Part shown: positions 8,868 through 24,205 of the stretch, in pieces
Layout of the letters: each line of letters starts with the position of its first letter
How positions within the stretch are numbered: position 1 is the first letter of the stretch
Source: Dacryopinax spathularia
Lineage: Eukaryota; Basidiomycota; Dacrymycetes; Dacrymycetales; Dacrymycetaceae
NCBI GenBank assembly: GCA_037974965.1
Contig: JBBPFI010000004.1
Span: 372,001 to 436,000, forward strand
DNA: 64,000 nucleotides
Reading direction: 5' to 3'
Notes under the pieces: model-generated
Told to the model about the DNA's origin: nothing
Seen by the model: the letters and a program-made list of their open reading frames with translations, nothing else
The model's database searches: none
Position numbers and translations under genes: made by a program

Positions 8868-9673
8868 TTACTCCTCATCCTCCCTGTCCGCCCTGAACTT
8901 CGGATTCGCTCTCGGTCCCTCCGCATCCTCGTCATCCTCATCGTCCCTCTTCCGCTTATTAGTCTGTGGCTGCTCCACAGGCTGTTGCTTCCAAGCCTCT
9001 CCACCACCGGCAACTGCCCCAGGTCCAGTCTCCGCATCCCGGTACACGGCTTCTCTTGCTGCCTGTGCACCCCATCCACCTCGACCGGCATCGTAGTCCT
9101 GCCTATGCTCGTCTCGTACTTGCCCACCGCTCTTCCCTCGCCCGAATTGCCGCCCTTCTTGGTACCCCAGGTCGAGGTCACATCGGATTATCCGCTCGTC
9201 CAGCTTCGTTCCACTGATATATCGCATACATGCCAGCGCTTCCGCATGCGTGTAGAACTCGACGAAACAGAATCCGCACGGTGTTCTGAGAATACCATAA
9301 GCCGCAGAGCTCAGGAGACGCGAAAGTGGCTTGGCCTACTTTTGGAACCGATCAAGACCCATGATGATGCGCTTCAGTCCACCTCCATCTTCCGGATTTG
9401 CACATTTTGAGAACAGCTCATATATTTGCTCTTCGGTAGTGTAGAAGGAAAGATTGCCAACCTAGATCGGTCGTGAGCTCAGGATGTTGCATTCGCGCGC
9501 AAGATACCCACGTATAATGTACAGGACTTGGAGAGGATCTCTTGCTGTCGTTGCCGGTCGACCTAAACACTGTCTCAATACGGCACTTTCTGTGATACTC
9601 ATCAAAGGCGTACGTTAGCTTTAGAATCCTTGTACGTGGACGGCTTGTCCAGTGGTGTGACGATGTGCGCCAT
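8868..9673 (-). CDS. cbp20: Nuclear cap-binding protein subunit 2 (CBP20)
   Basis: Small subunit of the nuclear cap-binding complex; its RRM binds the m7G cap of nuclear transcripts together with CBP80. Spliced translation: [65 protein letters not shown]-type strand ([13 protein letters not shown]), [33 protein letters not shown]. The characteristic CBP20 tail [20 protein letters not shown] follows. RNP1 (GFCFVEF) and RNP2 (LYVGNL) are intact. The C terminus is an acidic/basic low-complexity tail ending REDEE. Introns follow KAN, TLY and FQK. A short insertion (CANPEDGGG) sits before the beta2 strand. Family assignment is secure. Confidence 0.93.
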
Positions 9674-12900: not shown

Positions 12901-13212
12901 CAAAGCAAGAACGAAATGGTCGATCTGGCTCACCGACTTGGTTGACAGGGATGACCGGGGTCGAGGAGGGGTCGCTGGTCCACCACCCATACCTTTCTGG
13001 GTTTGAGTGGGTTTAGGCAGTGTACTATCAGGAGGTAGTGCAAAGGAGAAGGGCTGCATTGAGGGACGGTATTCCGTCTCTCGGCGCCTTTCGCCTGCGC
13101 TCAATTGGTGACGCAGCTCCGCAGGCGCCTCACTGACGCTTCCGCCACCCCTATCAAAGGCGCGTGAATATGCCAGAACCCTTACAACACGTGCCGGTAT
13201 TGCCGCGTGCAT
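9983..13212 (-). CDS. gyp7: GYP7-type Rab GTPase-activating protein (TBC domain)
   Basis: TBC-domain protein of the Gyp7/TBC1D15 group, expected to stimulate GTP hydrolysis by Ypt7-type Rabs at endosomes and vacuoles. The N-terminal half has the lipid/Rab-binding-like region (EQNGSMVEITRDLEE, LLYARSKVYVYPTAYARDNV) followed by GDGT-type segment SPKWGGEALLQRLRSY. The TBC domain starts RPKAWPFLLGVYSW. Both catalytic fingers are visible: Arg in IDVDCRRTDR (near 11030) and Gln in GYVQGMSDLCSP (near 10790). Later motifs LFFCFRWILIAFKREF and VMRLWEVLWTDY are canonical. About ten short introns break the frame. The start at 13212 is the longest; Met52 (MQPFSFALPPDS, at 13059) is an alternative start. 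Ends LLENERG at 9983. Confidence 0.88.
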
Positions 13213-13589
13213 ATTGTTGCCTCGTGCCTTCGTGCAAGCATCCTACAGGATTTCCTGGTCTCGTGACAGAGGCGATGCACCACGCACCACGCACCACGCG
13301 CCCTTCTGCATCAATAGGGTTCTAATCTCAAGAAGGTTTTCCCGCTGATTGCCGATCTCGGCAATCGAACTTCTACGCCCGTGCCTATTGTCCTGGCTTC
13401 TTTACTGTCGACAATAGCCCGTTATCTAACCCTTGCTCACTGGCTACAGCTCGCCTCTTGCTCGACCTCCTGGCTCGGCTGTGTTACCTCGGGTGACCCG
13501 GAGCTGTACTGTCAACAATGAACCTCCTCGCTTTCATGTTAACGCTCTGGTGATTTCGACATGTCCTCGGCGCGGTCACGTTCGACCAA
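13213..13589. other. Left edge of the accessory island
   Basis: Spacer of 377 bp between the GYP7-like start and the CxC gene start. It contains three and a half tandem copies of the 7-mer GCACCAC at 13277-13299, which include the 15-mer CCACGCACCACGCAC (13280-13294) that recurs at the right edge of the island near 24045. An additional short 5' exon of the CxC gene could lie here but is not supported. Confidence 0.5.
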
Positions 13590-16500
13590 ATGTTATGTTT
13601 CTTGGCTTTCGCTCGACGTCTTCAATCTCGGATTGCTTGGCAACAGATCACTCGCATAGCCGAGCTTGATATACCGCCAATCGCCCTTCCTGAGACCGTT
13701 ATCCTGTTTCTGGCAACAGCTCTCGATGCGTCACCCGACCAAGTCACTGGCCTCTGGAGTGCTCTGCGGGAAGTCGTCTGGAAACCTGGCTTCAACCCCG
13801 CAGCCTTGGCCGTTCCGATTGTCGACGACTTCGGCCCATTCGCACGTCTCGCACAAAGCTTTAACCTCGGTGAGCGTCGTTTACTTATCACTCCCTCAAC
13901 CAACACAACCCCCAACACAACCTCCATCAACACCTCCTCCAACCCCACCTTCCCCAACCCCATCTCCACCAACCCGACCTCAACCAACACCACCTCCCCC
14001 AACCCCACCTCCAACACAACCTCAATCAATACGACCTCAACCAACCCGACCTCAACCAACACCACCTCCAACACAACCTCAACCAATACGACCTCAACCA
14101 ACCCCACCTCAACCAACACCACCTCCCCCAACCCCACCTCCAACACAACCTCAACCAATACGACCTCAACCTCAACCAACACCAACCCCTTCCCAACAAC
14201 CGGCAGTCCGCTGATCACCCGTCTATGCCATTCCTTTCCCTTCCCCTTTTCTCCCTTTCGCGTCCCAATCGCCTCAACTGCTGACAACTTCCCAGGTATC
14301 GAAGAGCTGTATCCGCCGACCAGAGTGTGCTTACGAAATCGGTGCCCTCTGTATCTCACCCACAACCGGAGGCAAGCACTTCACGACTGTAGAAGGCATT
14401 TCGCTGGGCTGTACACACTTGGACGTGGCGCATTTCCCGTCATAGTTGTGTCCCTGCGTTGCCGATCCTGTAGGGCGACGTACTTCCTCAACTACTATCG
14501 CGAGCAGGATGGCAATGGGGTAGAGGAGAGGATTTACTATGAGGGAGTGCCGTCTGTGGTACAAGCTGAGAAGCACATGCTGTTCGAGCGACAGCTGTGC
14601 GAGCTGTTCCGAGCTCAAACGGTACACGCGCAGTAAGTCTCTCCCTTCTCTCCTTTCTCTCCCTTCTCTCCCTTCTCTTCCTTCTCTCCCTTCTCTCTAT
14701 CACTCGTCCGCTCGCGATCCCGTCAATCCCCGCATCGCCGATCCCTCAACCACCGATCCCTCAACCAACACAACCGCGATCAACACAACCTCAACCAACA
14801 CAACCCCCTACTCCACCTCAACCAACTCAACCTCCACCACCGATCCCTCAACCAGCACAACCTCAACCAACACGACCTCCAACCCGACCTGCAGCCCGAC
14901 CTCAACCAACACATCCTCCAACACAACCTCCCCCAACCCCGCCTCAACCAACACAACCTCAACCAACCCCACCTCAACCAACACACCCTCCAACCTCACC
15001 TCCCCCAACCCGACCTCAACCAACACCACCTCAACCAACACAACCGCAACCACCAACTTCAACTATGCTTCTCCCTTTCCTCCTGCTTACGCCGTCTCCT
15101 TCCATTGTGCTGATGACTGACATTTCGACAGCGCGTCTGCTACAGCTATCGCGAGCACGTACGACCAAGCGCTGAGGCGCACCAGCTCCCGTTCGATTGG
15201 CTCATATGAAGCCCCAGCGCTGCGCGGGGAGTGGATATCCGATCTCTTCGACCTGTTTGCTCTGCTCTTGCACCACAACGAACAACGATCGTCATTACGC
15301 CTCCCGGAGAAAGCCCACAACCAGGCCCATCGTCTGTCTCGTGCCATGCAAGAGCAAAATCTGTTTATCGCCAGGAATGGGCAACCGCAGTGGGCACATG
15401 CTTGTGACCTGTGTATGAAGGTCGTTCAGCGCGGGAATGAGCAAAGTAAGCTCTATTCAGTCTCTAACTAGCTGGCGATCTGACCGCAAACTTAGAAATG
15501 ATACAGTGCGCCGTAACAGACGGTATATCCATTGGAAGGCCGTGCTGTTCAGTGCACAACTGTCCTTTGCCGCTCCCAACCAATCGTGCTCGTTTCTGCA
15601 TGGCACACTCGGACCGCGAGCAACTATGTGCAGTCGAAGGTTGCGAAGCGCCTAGGCAAGGCAGAAGCCTCACTTGTGCGCTCGTACAGCATCAAGCGCT
15701 TGAGCAACGGTACAAGGAGCCCGGGAAGTCGTTCGGCGTGCTTCAACGGCGACGTCTTCGAGTGACCCAACGTGACGGGTACGAAGGGCTGGACGCGTCC
15801 GACGTGGAGATGGAGACATCTGGGTTAGCCCACGAAGCTGCGCAGGCCGGGAAGGTCGTACCGGAGACGGAGGCTGGGTTGGAGGTTGAGATGGAGGTTG
15901 GGTTGGAGGTCGGGTTGGAGGTCGGGTCGGAGGAGGGAGTGCGAGTGGGTTCGGTGCAGGGGTCGAAGGAGGGGATGCGAGTTGGGTCGGTGGAGGTGTT
16001 GGAGGAGGGGTTGGGGTTCAAGTTGGCGGATGGGCTGGATGATGGGGTGGATGTCGGGATGGGGAATGGGTTGGAGAATGGGACGGGGGAGCTGTTGGAG
16101 GTTGGGTTGGGGGAGGGGTTGGAGGTTGGGTTGGGGGAGGGGTTGGAGGTTGGGTTGGAGGTTGGGTTGGGAGATGAGTTGGGGGTTGGGTTGGAGGTTG
16201 GGTTGGAGGATGAACTTGTCGAGATGGAGGTACAAGAGCAATCGGCGGATGAAGATTCCATTCAGCAAGACTCGCAGCCGAAAAGGGAGAAAAAGAAGAA
16301 GATCTTGCGCGCTCGCTTTGGGAGGAACAGGACACATAACGAGCAGCTCGTTGTGCGTCCCTGCGGCATAATCGTCGGGCGAGGAACCTTCTATGGTGCA
16401 GAGGCGGTCGGTTCTGTGATTGTAAGTAATCTGGACTGCATGCGAAGGAGAAGCAGCTGACAAAAGCATAGGATTTCATTATGTCGATCTTCCCTACGCG

Positions 16501-16921
16501 AGCGTCTATGCCAGACGTCTTGTACTTCGACAACAACTGTCAACTACGCCGACATCTGGAGAACCGATCAGAAGACGTCCACCGGCACTTCGAGCATACA
16601 ACTCTCGTCGTGGATGCGTTCCACTGGGACGCGAAACACAAGCGGAGCGCCGATGAGTACTGCAGCAAGTACTGCAATCCCGCTCTCTATCCAGAACTAT
16701 ACGATGAATCGAAGCCAAACAAGTGGCTCTTCAACTCATCGGCTTGCGAGCAAGCAAACGCCTGGCTGCGGAGATTTGGAACGCAAACCAGAGAGATGAC
16801 CGCTGTGCGGTTCGAGTTTTTCCTGGACGAGGTTATCAAAGCTCGCAATGAACACATTTTACTTCAGTTGAGTCGCAGCAATCATTTCCCTCATCTTATC
16901 CCTGCGAGTAGTTTGAGATAG
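13590..16921 (+). CDS. CxC5/CxC6 cysteine-cluster protein, KDZ-type transposase-related
   Basis: Spliced product matches the Agaricomycete proteins that join CxC5 and CxC6 zinc clusters to a KDZ-related RNase H-like nuclease. Exon 1 gives ITRIAELDIPPIALPETVI and SALREVVW. Exon 2 gives the CxC5 core (LYPPTRVCLRNRC, LRCRSCRATYFLNYY). Exon 3 gives WAHACDLCMKVV. Exon 4 gives the CxC6 cluster (GRPCCSVHNCPLPLPTN, FCMAHS, CAVEGCEAPRQGRSLTC) and then RARFGRNRTHNEQLVV. The last exon gives MPDVLYFDNNCQLRRHL, LVVDAFHWDAKHK and NSSACEQANAWLRRF, with acidic residues expected of the nuclease site. Introns 1 (13870-14295) and 2 (14633-15131) are long because each contains a minisatellite tract; intron 1 is a multiple of 3 and open, so it could be retained. 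A third tract (15870-16212) is coding, as a Gly-Leu-Glu-Val run. The frame is intact to the stop at 16921. The exact start is uncertain. Confidence 0.8.
13890..14190. repeat. AACC-rich minisatellite tract A (in intron 1 of the CxC gene)
   Basis: Interspersed 12- and 15-nt units such as TCAACCAACACAACC and CCAACCCCACCTCC, with the C-rich strand on +. The tract lies between a GTGAGC donor at 13870 and a CTGACAACTTCCCAG acceptor ending at 14295, so it is most likely intronic. Confidence 0.9.
14638..14700. repeat. CT-rich microsatellite (CTCCCTTCT units)
   Basis: Tandem TCTCTCCCTTC-type units directly after the intron 2 donor (GTAAGT at 14633) of the CxC gene. The stretch is almost purely pyrimidine on the coding strand. 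Confidence 0.85.
14743..15058. repeat. AACC-rich minisatellite tract B (in intron 2 of the CxC gene)
   Basis: Same unit family as tract A, including TCAACCAACACAACC and CCAACCCGACCTCAA, with the C-rich strand on +. It sits between the donor at 14633 and the acceptor CATTTCGACAG ending at 15131. Splicing there restores the frame ASATAIASTYDQ. Confidence 0.9.
15870..16212. repeat. AACC-rich minisatellite tract C (coding in exon 4 of the CxC gene, inverted)
   Basis: The same minisatellite but with the G-rich strand (GGTTGGAGGTTGGG) on +, opposite to tracts A and B. It is read as repeated GLEVGLEV/GLGEGLEV between the CxC6 cluster and the nuclease part. No good splice pair removes it, so it is probably translated. 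Confidence 0.88.
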
Positions 16922-16994
16922 TTAGTGTAAAATGGTGTCATGTATTCCTACCAAATCAGAATCGAATCCATTGCAGAGCATCGCACAGAGAGCT

Positions 16995-17015
16995 GTTGTG
17001 TTATTGTGCCGACCG
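16995..17015 (+). repeat. Dispersed 21-bp motif, copy 1
   Basis: Perfect copy of the motif with core TGTGTTATTGTGCCGACC, in the 225-bp space between the stop codons of the convergent genes ending at 16921 and 17147. Confidence 0.9.
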
Positions 17016-17045
17016 ATCTGGGCACAAACGTCTACAGAAGCAAGA

Positions 17046-17066
17046 GTTGTGTTATTGTGCCGACCG
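17046..17066 (+). repeat. Dispersed 21-bp motif, copy 2
   Basis: Second perfect copy, same orientation, starting 51 bp after the start of copy 1 and in the same convergent spacer. Confidence 0.9.
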
Positions 17067-17146
17067 AGTCGGCCGACACACACTTTCATTCAAAACATGT
17101 AACGCGATTCTTAACAACTCGACCTGTAACTACGCCTCTAACCATC

Positions 17147-18268
17147 TCAGGCCCCAGAAACCCCCATGGCATTATCCATAGCATTCTCGATAGCGTGCTC
17201 GATAGCGTCCTCCGCGACGTCCTTCGCGAGCTTACCTAGGAACAACGGTCAGTACAAATTAATGAAAACGCATTCGAACACCTACCGCCGAGCTTGGCAA
17301 TCTTGCCAAAGATCTTCTTGACAACGGGGACCTTTGGCTCCCCCTCGGGAGCATGCCCACCGGGCTGGGCATGCTCTTCAGCTTGGCCGGCGCTAGTGAC
17401 GGCGGGCTCGGGGTTGTTGACGGCGGGCAGGGGGAGAGGAACGGCGGGGAAAGGGAGATCTTCGTCGTCGTCCGACTCGATTGCGGGAGCCGGCTGGTGC
17501 TCATCCACCCACTTCTTCCCCTCCGCAACGAAATGCTCCCAGGTCTGGTCGTGAAGAGCCTGGCGGGCGAGATGCTTTTTGATGAGCCTCTCCTCTTCGC
17601 GCTCGATCAGCTCCTCGACACGAGTGCGCCTTCCCACTTCGAAGCCGGGGACAGAGATGCGCTGGAGTTCGCCCGCGAAACCGGGACGACTCATTCGACC
17701 AAAATCCCCCTCCGGCTTGCGCTCGTCCCGAAGCTCTTGCAGAGTAGGGGGACGAGCAGGGGCGGCATGGCGTGGCGAGGCATTCGCCAAGTCATCGGGC
17801 GCAGTGGTGTGCACGACGGGGACTTGGTAAGAGTCCTAGAAGAACATCAGCAGCGGTCGGCACAATAACACAACTCACCATCATGATCCCCTCCCTCTCC
17901 ATGACCGCAACTAGGGGGATACCGCGCACGAGAGCCGGCGCCCCAAGGTTGTACTCCACCTTGCGGATCTCCGAGATGACTGCCTGCTTCAGCGTCATCC
18001 CCTCCACCACAACCCCACCCCTTTCTCCCTCAGCTCCCCCAGAAACCCCTCCCACACCCGCATACACTTGGGCTTTCGCCCCACTCCCCGCGTTTCCCCC
18101 AGAGGCCAACGACGACGGCGAGCCTTGGTCCATCTTGGGCGAGTGACGATCGTCGTCGTCCGGACGCTTGATGTCTTGAAGAGCGTTGGGAGAAGATTCG
18201 AGAGCCGAAGGACTTGAGTAAGTCGATTTGAAAGAGACAGGAGTAGAGGGAGGCGAGGACGCCTCCAT
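17147..18268 (-). CDS. Hypothetical island protein with C-terminal amphipathic helix
   Basis: I do not recognise a family. Two introns are clear. A 43-nt intron (17836-17878) joins AVMEREGIMM to DSYQVPVVHTTAP, and a second (about 17238-17290) joins KIFGKIAKLGG to KLAKDVAEDAIEHAIENAMD and the end MGVSGA at 17147. The N terminus is Ser/Pro-rich (MEASSPPSTPVSFKSTYSSP). The middle holds a hydrophobic, possibly folded segment (MTLKQAVISEIRKVEYNLGA, LVRGIPLVAVMEREG). Then come a charged helical region (RVEELIEREEERLIKKHLAR, DQTWEHFVAEGKKWVDEHQP), an acidic Pro-rich linker and the final helix. The first intron has copy 3 of the island's 21-bp motif at its donor site. The gene converges on the CxC gene and diverges from the gene at 18930. 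Confidence 0.62.
17854..17874 (-). repeat. Dispersed 21-bp motif, copy 3 (inside an intron)
   Basis: Perfect copy on the minus strand, preceded by GTGA so that it forms the first half of the 43-nt intron 17836-17878 of the hypothetical gene. Confidence 0.9.
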
Positions 18269-18929
18269 GAGTCGATGTTGATGGTCGAGGGGAGAGAGGA
18301 CGGTTGGGGGCGTCTACAGGTTATCAGTGCGGTGAGCGGAATCAGATTGCCGGGAATGACTACACCAGCAATGTAGCTTCTGGCGTGCTGTATCCTCGAG
18401 GCTCGGGAAAGTCGTGGAAGAGGTCGATGTTTGAAGAGTGAGAGTTGTGTTATTGTGCCGGCCGCACACGAGGCATCCTGCCAGCACAACTGAAGTGGAG
18501 AAGGGTAGGTCAGAGGAGGGGATATGGGGGGGAATATTTCACTGTGCTTGTGTGGACGCTATGGCATGTACCTCTTGGGCGCAATGGATTGCACATTGAC
18601 GAGAATACTGGAGGTTGAAGAGATGAATGCTATTGTCATGTTAACAATAAGCGCCCGCGTAGATCTGGATCGGGAATGCTATCATCATTGCTATATTGGG
18701 GTTCGGAAGCGCCCACGGATGCTAAGTGACACCAACGGCTAAATGTGCTTGGTCATCGCCTCCAGCCTCCTCCTCATCGTCTCCTTCCTACGACCATCTC
18801 GCTCATCTGTTTTCCATTGCTCACACCTAGTCTGAAGTCAAATAACCGCCTGTAAGTTGCTATAGTAGTCCTTTGAAGTTCACTAGCCTTACTCACCTGT
18901 CTATTAGCTTATCTACCCCAAGGCCTCAC
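18269..18929. other. Divergent spacer between two island genes
   Basis: 661 bp containing the start regions of the minus gene (18268) and the plus gene (18930), plus copy 4 of the 21-bp motif. Possible 5'-UTR introns are seen (GTAGTC...CTGTAG on the minus strand, GTAAGT...CTATTAG on +). No other gene is evident. Confidence 0.5.
18444..18464 (+). repeat. Dispersed 21-bp motif, copy 4 (one mismatch)
   Basis: Copy with one A-to-G change near its 3' end, in the divergent promoter region. It is preceded by GTGAGA, as is copy 5. Confidence 0.88.
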
Positions 18930-20363
18930 ATGGTGGCTGAATGGGTGAAGGGAACCTCTCGCCGGATGTCAACCGTGCAGAACGGTGACAGGGCCGGCTG
19001 GGAAGTCAATGGTGCGCCCCTTGGCAGAACATTGAATGAGCTTGTTGAACTAACACAAGTCTCAGATATTGGCGTTGAACATGCAAGCAAGAGAGGACGT
19101 GGCCCCGAGCAAGCGACCAACGTGGTTGCTCGGGGCAAGCAGAGTATCGTTGGGAGATTCGGTCGGCACAATAACACAACTCTCACCGCCCTTCGCCTGC
19201 GGAAGGGCCCGGCAGCCGACACTGCTGCCACCCGGTCTTCAATCCACGGCTGTCCTACGAGGATTGAGGACAACTCCGTTCTCCCCTTGCAGGAGAACCC
19301 GATCACCGACATCGTGATCACCACATCTCGCTTCTCTGCCAGCTCTGCGGAGTTCGAGTCCAACCCAACCTCCAACCCAACCTCCAACCCCCCCTCCAAC
19401 CCAACCTCCAACCCCCCCTCCAACCCAACCTCCAACCCAACCTCCAACCCGACCTCCAACCCGACCTCCAACACAACCTCAACCAACCCAACCTCCAACC
19501 CGACCTCCAACCCGACCTCCAACACAACCTCAACCAACCCAACCTCCAACCCGATCTCCAACCCGACCTCCAACACAACCTCAACCAACCCAACCTCCAA
19601 CCCGACCTCAACCAACCCAACCTCCACCAACCCAACCTCCATCAACACCTCCAACCCCACCTTCCCCAACCCCATCTCCACCAACCCGACCTCAACCAAC
19701 CCGACCTCCAACCCGACCTCCACCAACACAACCTCAACCAACACCACCTCCCCCAACCCCACCTCAACCAACCCCACCTCAACCAACCCCACCTCAACCA
19801 ACCCCACCTCAACCAACCCCACCTCAACCAACACAACCTCAACCAACACAACCTCAACCACCAATGTTGATGATCGTCAATGCGCTCCTGTTGAGACTGT
19901 CAGCTTGGACGAAGGCACCCTTCCTCCTGAAGATCCACCAGCATACAAGATGTGGGAAGACATCCCCCCCATCTACGCTACTCTGCGCATCCCTCCGGAG
20001 TACGCGAACAACGGGTGGAACCCGGAGGCCTACCTGCCTTCACGCACGCCCAGCCCAAACCACAGCGACACATCCTCCACCCCCTCGCTCACACCCAGCT
20101 CAAGCGGTAGCATCCGGTCTAGCCCTCCCTCCTCGCCTGCCCTCAGCGCCCGCAACATCAGCCGCCCATGTACTCCTCCTGAGCCCATGCCGCTGCCTGG
20201 CTCCCGCCGCCGACCGCTTTCCGAGCGCTTTGATATGTCGTACGAAGCAATGGAGAGAGCGGCTCGTGATGCAGTTCGCAAGAGACTGCAGGAGCGGATG
20301 GACAGAGCGGGCGCTGGCTGGGCTGGCCCGCTTGCTGCTGCTCGAGCCTTTGGAAACCAGTAA
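18930..20363 (+). CDS. Hypothetical low-complexity protein with NPTS repeats
   Basis: No recognised family. The first supported ATG is at 18930 (MVAEWVKGTSRRMSTVQNGD). A good intron, GTGCGC to CTAACACAAGTCTCAG (about 19011-19065), joins WEVN to DIGVEHASKRGRGPEQ. Copy 5 of the 21-bp motif is inside the following coding stretch (GRFGRHNNTTLTALRLRKG). Minisatellite tract D then encodes about 165 residues of NPTSNPTS/NPTSTNTTS. After it comes a unique segment (VETVSLDEGTLPPEDPPAYK, WEDIPPIYATLRIPPEYA), a Ser/Pro-rich part and a basic helical C terminus (MERAARDAVRKRLQERMDRA). The order suggests a disordered protein with a short conserved module after the repeat. Expression is not proven. Confidence 0.5.
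   Translation: MVAEWVKGTSRRMSTVQNGDRAGWEVNGAPLGRTLNELVELTQVSDIGVEHASKRGRGPEQATNVVARGKQSIVGRFGRHNNTTLTALRLRKGPAADTAATRSSIHGCPTRIEDNSVLPLQENPITDIVITTSRFSASSAEFESNPTSNPTSNPPSNPTSNPPSNPTSNPTSNPTSNPTSNTTSTNPTSNPTSNPTSNTTSTNPTSNPISNPTSNTTSTNPTSNPTSTNPTSTNPTSINTSNPTFPNPISTNPTSTNPTSNPTSTNTTSTNTTSPNPTSTNPTSTNPTSTNPTSTNPTSTNTTSTNTTSTTNVDDRQCAPVETVSLDEGTLPPEDPPAYKMWEDIPPIYATLRIPPEYANNGWNPEAYLPSRTPSPNHSDTSSTPSLTPSSSGSIRSSPPSSPALSARNISRPCTPPEPMPLPGSRRRPLSERFDMSYEAMERAARDAVRKRLQERMDRAGAGWAGPLAAARAFGNQ
19160..19180 (-). repeat. Dispersed 21-bp motif, copy 5 (inside a coding frame)
   Basis: Perfect minus-strand copy, preceded on that strand by GTGAGA. In the + gene it is read as GRHNNTT. Confidence 0.9.
19362..19862. 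repeat. AACC-rich minisatellite tract D
   Basis: About 500 bp with the C-rich strand on +. The first part is mostly 12-nt CCAACCCAACCT units, the last part 15-nt CCACCTCAACCAACC units. It is open in the frame of the + gene as N-P-T-S repeats, and is also open on the minus strand. Confidence 0.92.
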
Positions 20364-20711
20364 AGCCACTCTTGGTATACATATGTCCTCTTGGTCAACG
20401 CTACCACAAACTTGTTGTATCCCAAACCTTCCCACCGATTCCACCATGTACTGATCTTTTGCCGCCGCTCCCCCACACGCTCTTTCTTTGTACGTCCCAA
20501 AGGGCAACGAATTGTATTAAGCCTTCAAGGCTGTAACTAGCTAAATACACTCGTTCATTCTAAACTAGTGCAAGTAAGGAGTGTGGTGTATAATCAAGGA
20601 AGAAGGAGCGTCAGTGAGAGTTGGGTATGAATGTAAACAAGTGAAGATTATTAAGGCCCAAGGGCAAGTGTACTTTGGCGGCTATCAACACATTGAGATG
20701 GGTATAACAAT
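20364..20711. other. Convergent 3' spacer
   Basis: 348 bp between the stop of the + gene and the stop of the minus Cys-cluster gene. AT-richer than its surroundings and probably 3'-UTR for both. No gene or repeat is seen. Confidence 0.5.
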
Positions 20712-22715
20712 CTACTCCTTCTGCTTCAGCTTGAGGGCTTTCCTAGCCTCCTTTGCAAATGCCTTCCACGGAGAGTGCGGCTTGGCCTCGAATTCCTGGA
20801 CCAGGGCTTGGACCTTGGGGTGCTCGTGACGGAGATAGCTGATGTGCTGCCTATAAGTATTATACGGCATATCGAACCCGTAACAGCTGCGAAATGCCAC
20901 CTGCCACAAGGTACCCTTGCCGTGCATCTGCTCATCGATGATCGCCGCAGCGTTCGCGACCGTTTCGAATGAGTGCTCGCCAGGCCAGTCATGCGCGGGC
21001 TGTTTCTTCTTAAGGGCGGTCACACGTTTGCGAACGGGCGTAGGTGTAGGTGGAATGGGAGGGGATGAGGGCGGCAGCGAAGAGAACAGGGGAGGCAATG
21101 TAGCCGCTAGGGCACGCTGGCGAGCAGTTGCTGTAGGAGACTCGGAAAGGTCCCATGTCTCGATCGGTGCTGCAGGCGATGGAGTGTCTCCCGTTAGGTC
21201 CAGAACGGTCTCAACACTGACAGAACGGCGCTGCGGGGGTGATGCTCTTCGGGGGCGAGCGTGAGGAGAATCTCGTGGATGAGGTTGTGTTGGTTGAGGT
21301 CGGGTTGGTGTTTGTGTTGGTTGAGGTTGTGTTGGTTGAGGTTGTGTTGGTTGAGGCGGGGTTGGAGGTTGTGTTGGTTGAGGTTGTGTTGGTTGAGGTG
21401 GGGTTGGAGGTTGTGTTGGTTGAGGTGGGGTAGGTTGAGGTGGGGTAGGTTGAGGTGGAGTTGGTTGAGGGACGGGTGTGTGGAGCTGCTTGGCTCTACG
21501 TCTGGCATCCCGAAGAACGGGGGGAAGCAGATGTCGGACCTCTTCTTGCACGGTCGCCGAGCTAGCAGCTACACCTGGTAGGCGGCAGAGGACCCGCTCG
21601 CCACGCTCGACCTGTCGATATGTCTGACAGTCGTAGGAAGCCCAGCTTTGCGACTCATAGTCGAATATGAAGAGCTCGTCGATTTGTCCCTCGAGAGCAA
21701 GGCGATCCAGTACACGCTTGGGCCAGTCGTTTACTCGTGTTGCGAGGCCATCGGACATGGAGGGCAATGCCGGCACGGCGTACGATAACTTTTCGTCCTG
21801 CGAATCGTGTGAGAAACCATGGAGGGAAGGCGACGAGCGACATACCTTCGTGAACAGAACCAAAGTGAAGACCCGGGCCAGTGCCTCGGCACGCTCTCTT
21901 GCCTCTTTCTCCTCCTGCCTGCGAGATTCGACTGCCTGGATCGCATCGTCTCGAGCTGACAGATACGCGCTTGTTGGCGGGCGACCAACAGGCGCCGGTC
22001 CAGCAAAAGCTTGCGAACGGGGAGGCTCGAACCCTGCGGCTGACGAGCCTGCAGTCTGTGCGCCTCCGGATCCTCCGCCTAGCCTCCCTTCGCGCGACAA
22101 CTCTCTCTCTCTACCCATCCCAGCATCCCACCCTTGCGCCCGTCGATGATACTCGCAGCCAATCTCTTTACCCCAGTCCTTGCACGTCGCCCCCTCGAGA
22201 CAGCATTGTTTACACCATTCCTTCTCGCAGGCCATAGCTGCGCGCCCTTTCCCGCAGGCCAGACAGAACAAGTATCGTTTGCCGGAAGAGTCTTGCTCGA
22301 GGCGTGCTCGCTTGTGAGGACGACCTTCTTGTACCGGGCTGGAACTCCAGGTGGGAACGGCGCTACGCATACTTGCTCGCAAGGCCCAGCGATCATCCGC
22401 ATGGAGGGGGTCGGTGATCCAGGTGATTCGCTCCTTCTTTGCTTGATGCTTCTTGCTGAAGCACTGTTACGTTTATCAGCGGAGGCGGCAAGCAGAGAAA
22501 GACCGCTCACTCACAATGGCATAGATCCACCCGTAGTTCTCCTCGTTCAGCTCATCCCGATCCATGCACACACGCAAGTGTGCCCCTTTAGCGCACACCC
22601 TACAATACACGCGCTTCGGCAACTTGATTCGCTCGGCTGGATTCGAGATTCGGTCATTGGCGATCTTCAAGACATCGGATATGGCGAGGTCAGGCTCAAC
22701 AGAGCGAGGAGCCAT
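20712..22715 (-). CDS. Island Cys-cluster (zinc-binding?) protein with proline/NPTS repeats
   Basis: From MAPRSVEPDLAISDVLKIAN the frame gives a first small Cys motif (YCRVCAKGAHLRVCMDRDEL), then NYGWIYAI. An intron GTGAGT...CGTAACAG (about 22460-22512) joins this to CFSKKHQAKKERITWITDPL. A second cluster follows: FCLACGKGRAAMACEKEWC, KQCCLEGATCKDWGKEIGC, EYHRR. A coiled helix (AVESRRQEEKEARERAEALA), tract E read as PQPTPPQPT, and a C-terminal module (FRSCYGFDMPYNTYRQHISY, WKAFAKEARKALKLKQKE) complete it. The Cys pattern suggests zinc binding and perhaps DNA binding, but I know no named family. The 5' end is unsettled: an acceptor lies just before MAPRSV, and upstream at 23589-23669 there is a clear intron (GTAAGC...CTAACTTTTTTGCGTTCAG), so tract F may be in a long intron of the same gene. 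Confidence 0.55.
21280..21472. repeat. AACC-rich minisatellite tract E
   Basis: About 190 bp with the G-rich strand on +. Read in the minus gene as PQPTPPQPTQP. Same unit family as tracts A-D. Confidence 0.9.
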
Positions 22716-22737
22716 GTCGAGAAGTGCTGAGAGACCG

Positions 22738-23416
22738 GTGGTTGAGGTGGTGTTGGTTGAGGTTGTGTTGGTCGAGATGGGGTTGGTTGAGGTGGGGTTG
22801 GGGGAGGTTGTGTTGGTTGAGGTGGTGGTCGGGTTGGACGGTGTGTTGGTCGAGATGGTGTTGGGGACGGTGGTGTTGGTTGAGGTGGTGTTGGTCGAGG
22901 TGGTGTTGGTTGAGGTGGTGTTGGTCGAGGTGGGGTTGGTTGAGGTGGGGTTGGTAGAGGTGGGGTTGGTTGAGGTGGTGTTGGTCGAGATGGGGTTGGT
23001 TGAGGTGGTGTTGGTCGAGATGGGGTTGGGGGAGGTGGTGTTGGTCGAGATGGGGTTGGGGACGGTGGGGTTGGAGGTGTTGGTTGAGGGAGTGTCGGTT
23101 GTGGAGGGGTGGGGGGAGGTGTTGGTTGAGGGACGGGTAGCGCAGGATGGGTTGGAGGTTGAGTTGGAGGTTGGGGGACGGGTGGTTGAGGCGGGGTTGG
23201 AGGTTGGGTTGGAGGGGCGGACGGATGATGGGTTGGAGGTTGGGTTGGAGGTTGGGTTGGAGGTTGGGTTGGAGGGGCAAACGGATGATGGGTTGGATGA
23301 TGGGTTGGAGGTTGGGTTGGAGGTTGGGTTGGAGGTTGGGTTGGAGGTTTGGTTGGTTGAGGGACGGGCGTTTGAGGTGGTGTTGGAGGTTGGGTTGGGG
23401 GTGATGTTGGTTAAGG
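22738..23416. repeat. AACC-rich minisatellite tract F
   Basis: About 680 bp, the longest tract, with the G-rich strand on + (GTTGGTCGAGGTGGGGTTGG, GGTTGGAGGTTGGG). It lies upstream of the MAPRSV start of the minus gene and is open in several frames. It may be a 5' exon or intron of that gene. Confidence 0.92.
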
Positions 23417-23643
23417 GACGGTTGGTGTTGTATGCCGGCAACGCTCGAGCTCGAGCAGGACGGGCTGCCCGAGCTCGAGCAGACCGAAAAGACGACGGCG
23501 CTGAGGATGTGGAGGAGAAGAGGGAGATGGTAGACGTTGGATGAGAAGAGACGACGGACGCAAGAGTCGGTCGAGCGAGAGCTGAACGCAAAAAAGTTAG
23601 GTGGCGCGCGAATATACGAGAACACGGAAAGCCTAGGCTTACC

Positions 23644-24078
23644 TTTTGATGGTCACCATCAAAAAAGATGCGTCCATCAATTACAGACAGGAACGCCCGG
23701 GCAGCAATATCCCTTGTTCTGGGTAGGAGGAGGAGGTCGGTATGTCGCCGAGTAGATTTTTATTTAGATAGCTTGAGCCAGCCTCAGCGGACGTGCGAGA
23801 CTGGCTCAAGCCCTCGAGCATGTCGCCTAGTTAAAAAAAAAATGAAAGAAAAATATCAAGACATTTTAAAGTAGAGGGCGATCTTGTACCTCTGTGAAGA
23901 GGTACATCGCACCATTGTTGGTTGTTACCAACAATGGATAAGGACGGCATACCCCGTCATCGGTCCCTGGCGATCAACGGATGCCGAGAGAAGGCCGCCG
24001 GCGCGCAAAAACGGGATCAAAAATTACTAATCTACCCTATGTAAGCCCACGCACCACGCACTTAGGTGCGTGGTGCGT
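23644..24078. repeat. Cluster of perfect inverted repeats at the right island edge
   Basis: Five perfect hairpins lie in 435 bp: TTTTGATGGT arms at 23644/23655 (1-nt spacer), GCTTGAGCCAG arms at 23771/23801 (19 nt), TGTACCTC arms at 23885/23899 (6 nt), CCATTGTTGGT arms at 23912/23927 (4 nt) and CCACGCACCACGCAC arms at 24045/24064 (4 nt). Between them is an A-rich stretch (23831-23875). No supported gene is present, apart from a possible exon and intron of the minus gene at 23589-23762. Confidence 0.85.
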
Positions 24079-24205
24079 GGACAAGTGTCACGAAACACGG
24101 AAGTCCTCGCATCCTACTGCTGAAGTACAAGTCCTCCCATACCTGCCTTCGTGGAAGGCGACATCCTTGAATCTACCTCTAAGTTCGCCGGCTTAAACGC
24201 CAAGC
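24079..24205 (+). promoter_or_regulatory. Presumed PDCD5 promoter/5' UTR
   Basis: 127 bp between the last hairpin of the island and the PDCD5 ATG. Positional inference; no clear TATA box. Confidence 0.3.

What the first reader, a model, noticed from the sequence alone, without database searches (positions are those of the whole stretch)
13213..24205. Accessory island: candidate large transposon with cargo genes between GYP7 and PDCD5
Seen: one KDZ-type CxC5/CxC6 transposase-related gene with an intact frame and splice sites, two orphan genes, and a Cys-cluster gene, all in an 11-kb block that also holds six tracts of one minisatellite, five copies of one 21-bp motif and a hairpin cluster. None of these repeats occurs in the other 53 kb. 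Known: KDZ elements of mushroom-forming fungi are large and may carry extra genes. Inferred: the block is a single mobile unit or its remains, and the orphan genes are its cargo.
Basis: partly seen in the sequence, partly recalled or inferred. Interest (0 to 1): 0.82.

Follow-up and report, generated by a model that had tools for sequence, protein, structure and literature searches.

The report
Jelly-fungus transposon with private address code
The island is one complete jumping gene whose two unknown genes are core parts, not passengers; each relative of it in the genome carries its own private, repeated DNA "address", which suggests that these elements recognise themselves by sequence.

Summary
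The 11-kb island is a single transposon, 13246-24108 (10,863 bp), with inverted ends and an 8-bp target-site duplication. The genome is that of the jelly fungus Dacryopinax spathularia (scaffold lengths). Four sister elements (last transposase exon 78-80% identical in protein; 10.0-11.0 kb; each with its own 8-bp duplication) carry the same four genes in the same order, so the "orphans" are core genes, not cargo. Element A and a three-copy family J carry the two orphans (ORF1, ORF2) with a different, tnp2/EnSpm-type transposase. Each of these seven lineages has a private version of a ~20-bp motif at dispersed sites: 95.7% identical within an element, 83.9% between elements at the same site, while the flanks behave the opposite way. 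J was reached through its ORF1 and then proved to have its own motif: 39 of 40 genome hits lie in its three copies. The ORF2 copy of the motif lies in a 222-nt domain with covarying RNA hairpins. Best reading: a two-gene self-recognition cassette shared between transposon superfamilies, TnpA/VANC-like in logic; whether it is read as DNA or RNA is open.

The parts
13238..13245 (.). 8-bp target-site duplication, left (GCATCCTA)
13246..24108 (+). complete transposon W, 10,863 bp
   Evidence: ends and duplication; four sister elements of 10.0-11.0 kb
24109..24116 (.). 8-bp target-site duplication, right; 89 bp before the PDCD5 ATG (24206)
   Evidence: PDCD5 domain
13246..13268 (+). left terminal inverted repeat CAGGATTTCCTGGTCTCGTGACA
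24086..24108 (-). right terminal inverted repeat
13518..16921 (+). CxC5/CxC6 KDZ-type transposase gene, exons 13518-13869, 14296-14632, 15132-15445, 15496-16421, 16472-16921; TGA at codon 12 (13551-13553)
   Evidence: exon joins and the stop; domains; conserved exons in B, C, D, E:
17147..18268 (-). ORF1 (orphan 1), 342 aa, exons 18268-17879, 17835-17286, 17235-17147; exon 2 models as one long helix
   Evidence: introns inferred
18930..20363 (+). ORF2 (orphan 2), single exon, 477 aa, conserved ends around a minisatellite-coded middle
19095..19316 (+). structured RNA domain inside ORF2 (hairpins HP1, HP2, HP3, HPX, HP4; motif copy between HP1 and HP2)
20712..23759 (-). ORF4, Cys-cluster gene (approximate: open frames 22476-23759 and 20712-22466, joined by an inferred intron)
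16993..17014 (-). private motif copy (2 mismatches), between the convergent ends of the transposase gene and ORF1
17044..17065 (-). private motif copy, same region; upstream inverted half-site of 11 bp
17855..17876 (+). private motif copy at the inferred 5' splice site of ORF1 intron 1 (antisense to ORF1)
18442..18463 (-). private motif copy between the divergent ORF1 and ORF2 starts
19161..19182 (+). private motif copy in the ORF2 exon, inside the RNA domain
13894..14171 (+). private minisatellite, transposase intron 1
14762..15052 (+). private minisatellite, transposase intron 2
15869..16212 (-). private minisatellite, transposase exon 4
19359..19860 (+). private minisatellite, ORF2 exon
21276..21470 (-). 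private minisatellite, ORF4
22739..23421 (-). private minisatellite, ORF4 (two arrays)
13347..13366 (.). left-end hairpin, also in element C
23644..24080 (.). right-end hairpin cluster (23644-23664, 23885-23906, 23912-23937, 24047-24080); hairpins with changed arms near the right end of B, E and C

Best explanation
Shown: the island is one complete DNA transposon with a CxC5/CxC6 (KDZ-type) transposase gene and three further core genes, in Dacryopinax spathularia. Inferred: its two orphan genes form a divergently transcribed cassette that lets the element find its own DNA through a private code. An element-encoded factor (ORF1, ORF2 or both) binds the ~20-bp motif wherever it occurs in that element; motif and factor diverge together, so that each lineage addresses only itself. 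The likely use is to activate or un-silence its own genes, or to help its own transposition, as TnpA does for plant Spm/En and VANC for Arabidopsis VANDAL elements. The cassette occurs with two unrelated transposases (KDZ-type and tnp2/EnSpm), so it has moved between superfamilies. The covarying RNA domain in ORF2 suggests that ORF2 RNA is part of the system; its role is unknown. Probabilities: single transposon 0.98; orphans are core genes 0.95; motif is a self-recognition site 0.7; read mainly by a protein on DNA 0.45.
For: Ends and 8-bp duplications in W, B, D, E and C. Same four genes, order and orientation in all five. Degenerate motif genome-wide: 40 of 43 hits fall in six elements, reversed-pattern control 0. 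Motif identity 0.957 within elements against 0.839 between elements at four orthologous site classes (one copy taken where a class had several), 0 of 10,000 label permutations as high; 24-bp flanks give 0.32 and 0.30 within, 0.45 and 0.49 between. With all 47 copies: 0.936 against 0.825. B and E are about 70-76% identical in their longest alignments, yet at three of the four site classes their copies differ by the same single G/T change (the fourth class has other changes as well). Flanks without homology argue against gene conversion. Prediction test: a weak ORF1 hit led to J, which has its own motif, 39 of 40 genome hits in its three copies. A and J carry tnp2; A has CAC..GTG ends and a 3-bp duplication CAT, chosen as the best of four candidate pairs listed. 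Inverted half-site of 6 bp or more upstream in 17 of 42 copies, against 15% in controls.
Against: No binding was or could be tested. ORF1 and ORF2 match no DNA-binding family in Pfam, and ORF1 exon 2 models only as a long helix. In the five KDZ-type elements the motif stays in the central ORF1/ORF2 region (over 3.7 kb from either end in W), unlike TnpA sites. Locus K (C1:1829992) has ORF1 but no repeated 13-mer in the 3 kb read. No strong CpG depletion: W 0.82, window flanks 0.96-0.98, transposase exons 1.14, so methylation-based silencing is not evident. The W transposase gene has a stop at codon 12.
Confidence: 0.6

Rival explanations
1. RNA-level self-recognition: the structured ORF2 RNA presents the motif, partly single-stranded, and base-pairs with motif copies in the element's DNA or transcripts; or the antisense copy at the ORF1 5' splice site pairs with sense copies in the other transcripts (antisense control, small-RNA-like copy control, or splice control).
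For: 222-nt domain in six elements: 52 pairs, 15 with changes on both sides; shuffles mean 6.5, 0 of 500 as high; slid controls 2-4. In hairpins HP1-HP4 the departures from Watson-Crick are 7 G-U, 0 A-C and 1 other of 180 cells, which points to the sense RNA and not to DNA; over all 52 pairs they are 20 G-U, 5 A-C and 10 other of 312. W folds with z -2.9 in sense and -1.0 in antisense. The model finds J, which was not in its training set, at E 1.7e-20. Codon positions change evenly in the ORF2 block (5, 7, 8, W against C) but not in the last transposase exon (25, 19, 80, W against D). The intron copy is antisense to ORF1 at its 5' splice site in all seven lineages (read; introns inferred).
Against: Differences between other copies and the element's own intron copy are 17 mismatch-type and 2 wobble-type, not what pairing would favour. 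The helix that holds the motif's first five bases is broken in two of six elements (C and E). No RNA-guided effector domain was seen in the proteins scanned. W lacks the upstream half-site at its intron copy. The structure was derived from the same six sequences on which it was counted.
Confidence: 0.25
2. Neutral concerted evolution: slippage and within-element exchange homogenise minisatellites and motif, with no recognition function.
For: Minisatellites are homogenised as well: within-element profile similarity 0.31 against 0.07 between, 0 of 2000 permutations as high; they sit in introns and exons in both orientations. Tandem motif copies exist in A and E.
Against: Dispersed motif copies have no homology outside ~20 bp (flank identity about 0.3), and orthologous sites keep orientation and place in elements that are about 73% identical.
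Confidence: 0.15
3. Large cargo-carrying element: ORF1, ORF2 and ORF4 are passengers picked up by a KDZ transposon.
For: They have no Pfam family; an ORF2-like solo gene exists at C13.
Against: Present in order in 5 of 5 elements; 14 of 14 ORF4 hits lie within about 20 kb of a KDZ-type hit; ORF1+ORF2 also occur with tnp2 elements.
Confidence: 0.03

Closest known systems
KDZ / Zisupton DNA transposons of fungi (e.g. Cryptococcus KDZ1; PMC12730594 and PMC12810828, passages read)
   Same: transposase with a cysteine cluster of the CxC series, about 10-11 kb, inverted ends, 8-bp target-site duplications
   Different: CxC5/CxC6 type with three extra conserved genes, private minisatellites and a private motif; short imperfect ends against 139-241-bp ends in Cryptococcus; KDZ domain only weakly recognised
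TnpA and subterminal repeats of CACTA/Spm/En elements (PMC2613891, passages read)
   Same: element-encoded factor and a 12-20-bp repeated motif that differs between subfamilies and forms palindromes
   Different: here the motif is spread through A and J and central in the five KDZ-type elements; ORF1/ORF2 match no Pfam family; the cassette also occurs with a KDZ-type transposase; RNA domain
VANC anti-silencing system of Arabidopsis VANDAL elements (PMC5735166, sections 8, 9 and 11 read; PMC10398659, abstract)
   Same: element-encoded protein with conserved domains and a variable, tandem-repeat part (as in ORF2), and motifs in non-coding parts that change together and differ between related elements
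   Different: plant VANDAL elements, 9-bp motif, VANC protein family; here two genes, a ~20-bp motif also found in exons, fungal KDZ-type and EnSpm elements
TET/JBP genes shared among fungal transposon superfamilies (PMC12730594, passages read)
   Same: an accessory gene, thought to act against silencing, found in several DNA transposon superfamilies including KDZ and EnSpm
   Different: no TET/JBP match in the open frames scanned here; the shared unit is ORF1+ORF2+motif+RNA domain
CxC5/CxC6 genes of Pleurotus ostreatus (PMC7641404, passages read)
   Same: CxC5/CxC6 protein gene on a DNA fragment that inserted into MSH4
   Different: there reported next to Copia elements and not next to KDZ; 6,792-bp insert

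Membership tests
KDZ (Kyakuja-Dileera-Zisupton) | CxC cysteine cluster associated with KDZ transposases | tested here: met
   spliced W protein: CxC5 5.6e-30, CxC6 2.5e-25, both over cut-off; single exons
KDZ (Kyakuja-Dileera-Zisupton) | KDZ catalytic domain | tested here: inconclusive
   PF18758 matched in 7 of 7 proteins scanned, from profile position 119 or 120 on, but at E 0.00028 to 0.18 and 11.9-21.1 bits against a cut-off of 26.6
KDZ (Kyakuja-Dileera-Zisupton) | 8-bp target-site duplication (Zisupton) | tested here: met
   W, B, E, D and C: 5 of 5
KDZ (Kyakuja-Dileera-Zisupton) | terminal inverted repeats | tested here: met
   short imperfect repeats in W, B, D, E; weaker in C
EnSpm/CACTA (elements A and J) | tnp2 transposase, CAC..GTG ends, 3-bp duplication | tested here: inconclusive
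   A meets all three: PF02992 2.8e-10, CAT / CACCGCGTTT ends. J: PF02992 hit in the C2 copy only; ends not read
VANC anti-silencing | VANC protein domain (DUF1985, named in PMC5735166) | tested here: not met
   not among the Pfam matches of 6 of 6 ORF1 and 6 of 6 ORF2 proteins at E 1
VANC anti-silencing | element-specific dispersed motif | tested here: met
VANC anti-silencing | binding to the motif and loss of silent marks | not testable with these tools
   needs protein and chromatin assays
CACTA TnpA system | motif repeats in subterminal regions | tested here: not met
   W copies at 16993-19182 of 13246-24108; in A copies lie also about 0.3 and 0.6 kb from the ends
Starship-like giant elements | tyrosine-recombinase captain (recalled: DUF3435) | tested here: not met
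   no such match in the eight window translations scanned

The most novel reading that the evidence does not exclude
A eukaryotic transposon system that recognises itself through RNA: a structured, covarying RNA domain inside ORF2 presents a private ~20-nt sequence whose targets are scattered through the same element; code changes found new self-recognition groups (like plasmid incompatibility groups), and the cassette moves between KDZ-type and EnSpm transposons.
Probability: 0.22. Interest if true: 0.95.

Novelty: new variant of a known kind. Interest (0 to 1): 0.78.

Why it matters
The precedents for transposon self-recognition by co-diverging motifs that I found are from plants. Here one small fungal genome holds seven private codes in nine copies (W, A-E, three of J), with the same cassette on two unrelated transposases, so code change, cassette exchange and specificity can be tested directly by swaps. 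The covarying RNA domain inside a coding gene at a code site is unexpected and makes an RNA-based mechanism testable. The published annotation of this genome counts only 34,030 bp of DNA transposons (PMC11066560, passages), less than the six elements described here (about 64 kb).

Tried and rejected
Host gene island: rejected by the exact ends, the 8-bp duplication and the sister elements. Cargo: rejected. Gene conversion as the source of motif identity: unlikely, since flanks carry no homology. DNA cruciform in place of RNA: less likely (20 G-U against 5 A-C over the whole structure; 7 against 0 in HP1-HP4). Methylation decay: no strong CpG depletion. ORF1: nothing at E 0.01 among 7986 candidates scored, nothing in the PDB sequences at E 1. 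Rfam on 13200-24200: one line at E 0.87, below its curated score. ORF4 N-terminal fold was poor (pLDDT 55), so no fold search was made. Ten of 37 minisatellite tracts in the five KDZ-type elements, and 14 of 42 in all six, have their nearest relative in another element. Of the five covariation measures one, further pair types, was reached by 7 of 500 shuffles. The codon comparison of W with A was made without gaps across a 3-base insertion in A and is not used. Motif counts rest on similarity searches with up to 4 mismatches, so strongly changed copies are missed. Paper searches. No paper held 'KDZ', 'minisatellite' and 'transposon' together; none of the listed titles and abstract starts describes such a code in fungi; subscription papers are not covered.


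Full report
WHAT IS THERE. The window is C4:372001-436000 of a 29,246,034-base assembly in 24 contigs. The contig lengths of C2, C4, C6, C7, C12 and C13 equal scaffold lengths in Table 3 of the Dacryopinax spathularia genome paper (PMC11066560, passages read); C1 differs slightly (3,152,500 against 3,153,799). The ten best database relatives of the CxC5/CxC6 protein are from Calocera, the same class.

ENDS. The island is bounded by GCATCCTA at 13238-13245 and 24109-24116, inside which lie inverted ends CAGGATTTCC...CGTGACA and TGTCACG...GGAAGTCCTC. Four sister elements have related ends and their own 8-bp duplications: B (C4, 10,844 bp, GAGGCCAA), E (C2, 10,791 bp, GGCAAGGC), D (C6, 10,021 bp, TGCTTTTC) and C (C1, 11,025 bp, CGAGCGAG). 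The right duplication of W ends 89 bp before the PDCD5 start codon.

GENES. All five carry, in the same order and orientation, the CxC5/CxC6 transposase gene (+), ORF1 (-), ORF2 (+) and ORF4 (-). The last transposase exon is 78-80% identical in protein between W and the four sisters and 47-56% in 23 further loci (28 loci scored, a lower bound). ORF4 has 14 hits, each within about 20 kb of such a locus. ORF1 and ORF2 of the other five elements are 35-42% and 33-42% identical to W. The orphans are therefore core genes. In W the transposase gene has TGA at codon 12 where the four sisters have an arginine codon (alignment); a downstream ATG could serve, or the copy is impaired. The KDZ domain is matched at one profile region in 7 of 7 proteins scanned, always below the cut-off.

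A CASSETTE ON TWO TRANSPOSASES. Element A (C1, 10,710 bp) holds ORF1, ORF2 and the motif but a tnp2 transposase (PF02992, 2.8e-10), with CAC..GTG ends and a 3-bp duplication as the best of four candidate pairs; such ends and a 3-bp duplication are given for EnSpm in PMC12730594 (passages). J was reached from a weak ORF1 hit: three copies on C2, C3 and C12 with ORF1 exon 2 96-100% alike, an ORF2, and a PF02992 hit in the C2 copy. ORF1 relatives occur at further loci. ORF2 relatives occur in Calocera viscosa (three), C. cornea (one) and D. primogenitus (one); in the last two the peptide at the motif place is repeated in a private form (RQNSTTQ twice; RYSYST twice), which suggests the same behaviour there.

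THE PRIVATE CODE. Core motifs: W GTCGGCACAATAACACAAC, A GTCGGTACAACTACACAAC, B GTCGGCACAACTACACAAC, C GTCGACACAGCTACACAAC, D GTCGGCACAACTACACTAC, E GTCTGCACAACTACACAAC; the commonest form is seen in 4 of 5, 13 of 18, 4 of 5, 3 of 6, 6 of 7 and 3 of 6 copies. J: ACGTCCAGCACAACTACATCAC. Four site classes correspond across W and A-E: ORF2 exon, ORF1/ORF2 promoter region, ORF1 intron, and the 3' region. Identity within elements exceeds identity between elements at the motif (0.957 against 0.839; 0 of 10,000 permutations as high), while the flanks show no within-element excess (668 and 1664 of 2000 permutations as high). In the genome 40 of 43 degenerate hits are in the six elements and 39 of 40 J-type hits in J. 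Copies inside long open frames run in the sense direction of the frame as far as I read them by eye, while the ORF1 intron copy is antisense; the sense-only pattern may partly reflect that one antisense frame holds stops.

MINISATELLITES. Tracts make up 14-21% of the five KDZ-type elements and sit at similar places, but the unit is private to each element: similarity 0.31 within against 0.07 between in all six, 0 of 2000 permutations as high. In W they occur in introns and exons in both orientations, with periods that are multiples of three, so the constraint looks like DNA-level rather than protein-level.

RNA DOMAIN. The ORF2 motif copy lies in a 222-nt block. B and E are 75-100% alike in 40-base windows across it, and 100% in the two windows around the motif, against about 73% over their longest alignment. 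RNAalifold gives 52 pairs, 15 of them doubly compensated; shuffles 6.5 +/- 1.7, slid controls 2-4. Hairpins with loop GCCTGCG have 6-7-bp arms that differ between elements but stay complementary: 13 in the six elements and 4 in J, all ORF2-sense, against 0 of 13 such centres with arms of 5 bp or more in the rest of the window (two further matches to the loose centre, one in W at element position 9338 and one in L038). Of 14 distinct arm pairs 13 pair fully; with partners shuffled the mean is 1.65 and the maximum 8. A covariance model built on the six found J (80.5 bits) outside its training set; as sequence also contributes to that score, the compensated pairs are the stronger evidence.

HOW IT MOST LIKELY WORKS. 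Shown: mobile unit, core genes, private code, shared cassette, conserved RNA structure. Inferred: an element-encoded factor reads the code. TnpA of Spm/En and VANC of VANDAL elements give the precedent for element-encoded DNA-binding proteins whose short targets diverge with them (PMC2613891 passages; PMC5735166 sections 8, 9, 11). The middle of ORF2, tandem-repeated between conserved ends, resembles what is said there of VANC. Sharing of an accessory gene among fungal transposon superfamilies has a precedent in TET/JBP (PMC12730594 passages). I hold a protein on DNA somewhat more likely than RNA pairing because differences among copies do not favour wobble pairs (17 against 2), but the RNA structure is well supported and unexplained.

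LIMITS. One genome; no expression, binding or chromatin data; introns inferred; J ends not read; K is a counter-example in the 3 kb seen. For the 3' site class, and for D's ORF1 intron, one copy per element was chosen; one search uses all 47 copies with the same direction of result. The Pleurotus report of CxC5/CxC6 genes apart from KDZ (PMC7641404 passages) speaks for caution with the KDZ name.

Noticed in passing
L053 1571-2668 (C13:567571-568668): A solo ORF2-like gene with the peptide YKRWEDIPPIYATLRIPPE, without motif or transposase in the 26 kb read: a host relative, source or domesticated copy.
   Followed up: partly
L036, L038, L040 (C7:971k, C2:1741k, C7:372k): Another KDZ-type family (about 55% protein identity) carries its own clustered palindromic motif around CAAGTCACCGTGCTCGGTACTTG: 8 copies in the F and H stretches, 12 in the G stretch, up to 6 mismatches.
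   Followed up: partly
L056 (C1:1827801-1830800): Locus K has ORF1 and a possible ORF2-like frame (by eye) but no repeated 13-mer in the 3 kb read.
   Followed up: partly
window 13551-13553: In-frame TGA at codon 12 of the transposase gene.
   Followed up: yes
window 23644-24080: Right-end hairpins have counterparts near the right end of B, E and C with changed but still complementary arms; the last one is CACGCAC-type in W and TATGCAC-type in B and E.
   Followed up: partly
C3:1604254, C3:2367511, C5:1517485, C17:356344, C12:383646: Further ORF1 relatives whose surroundings were not read; C12:383646 lies near a PF02992 hit at C12:388709.
   Followed up: no
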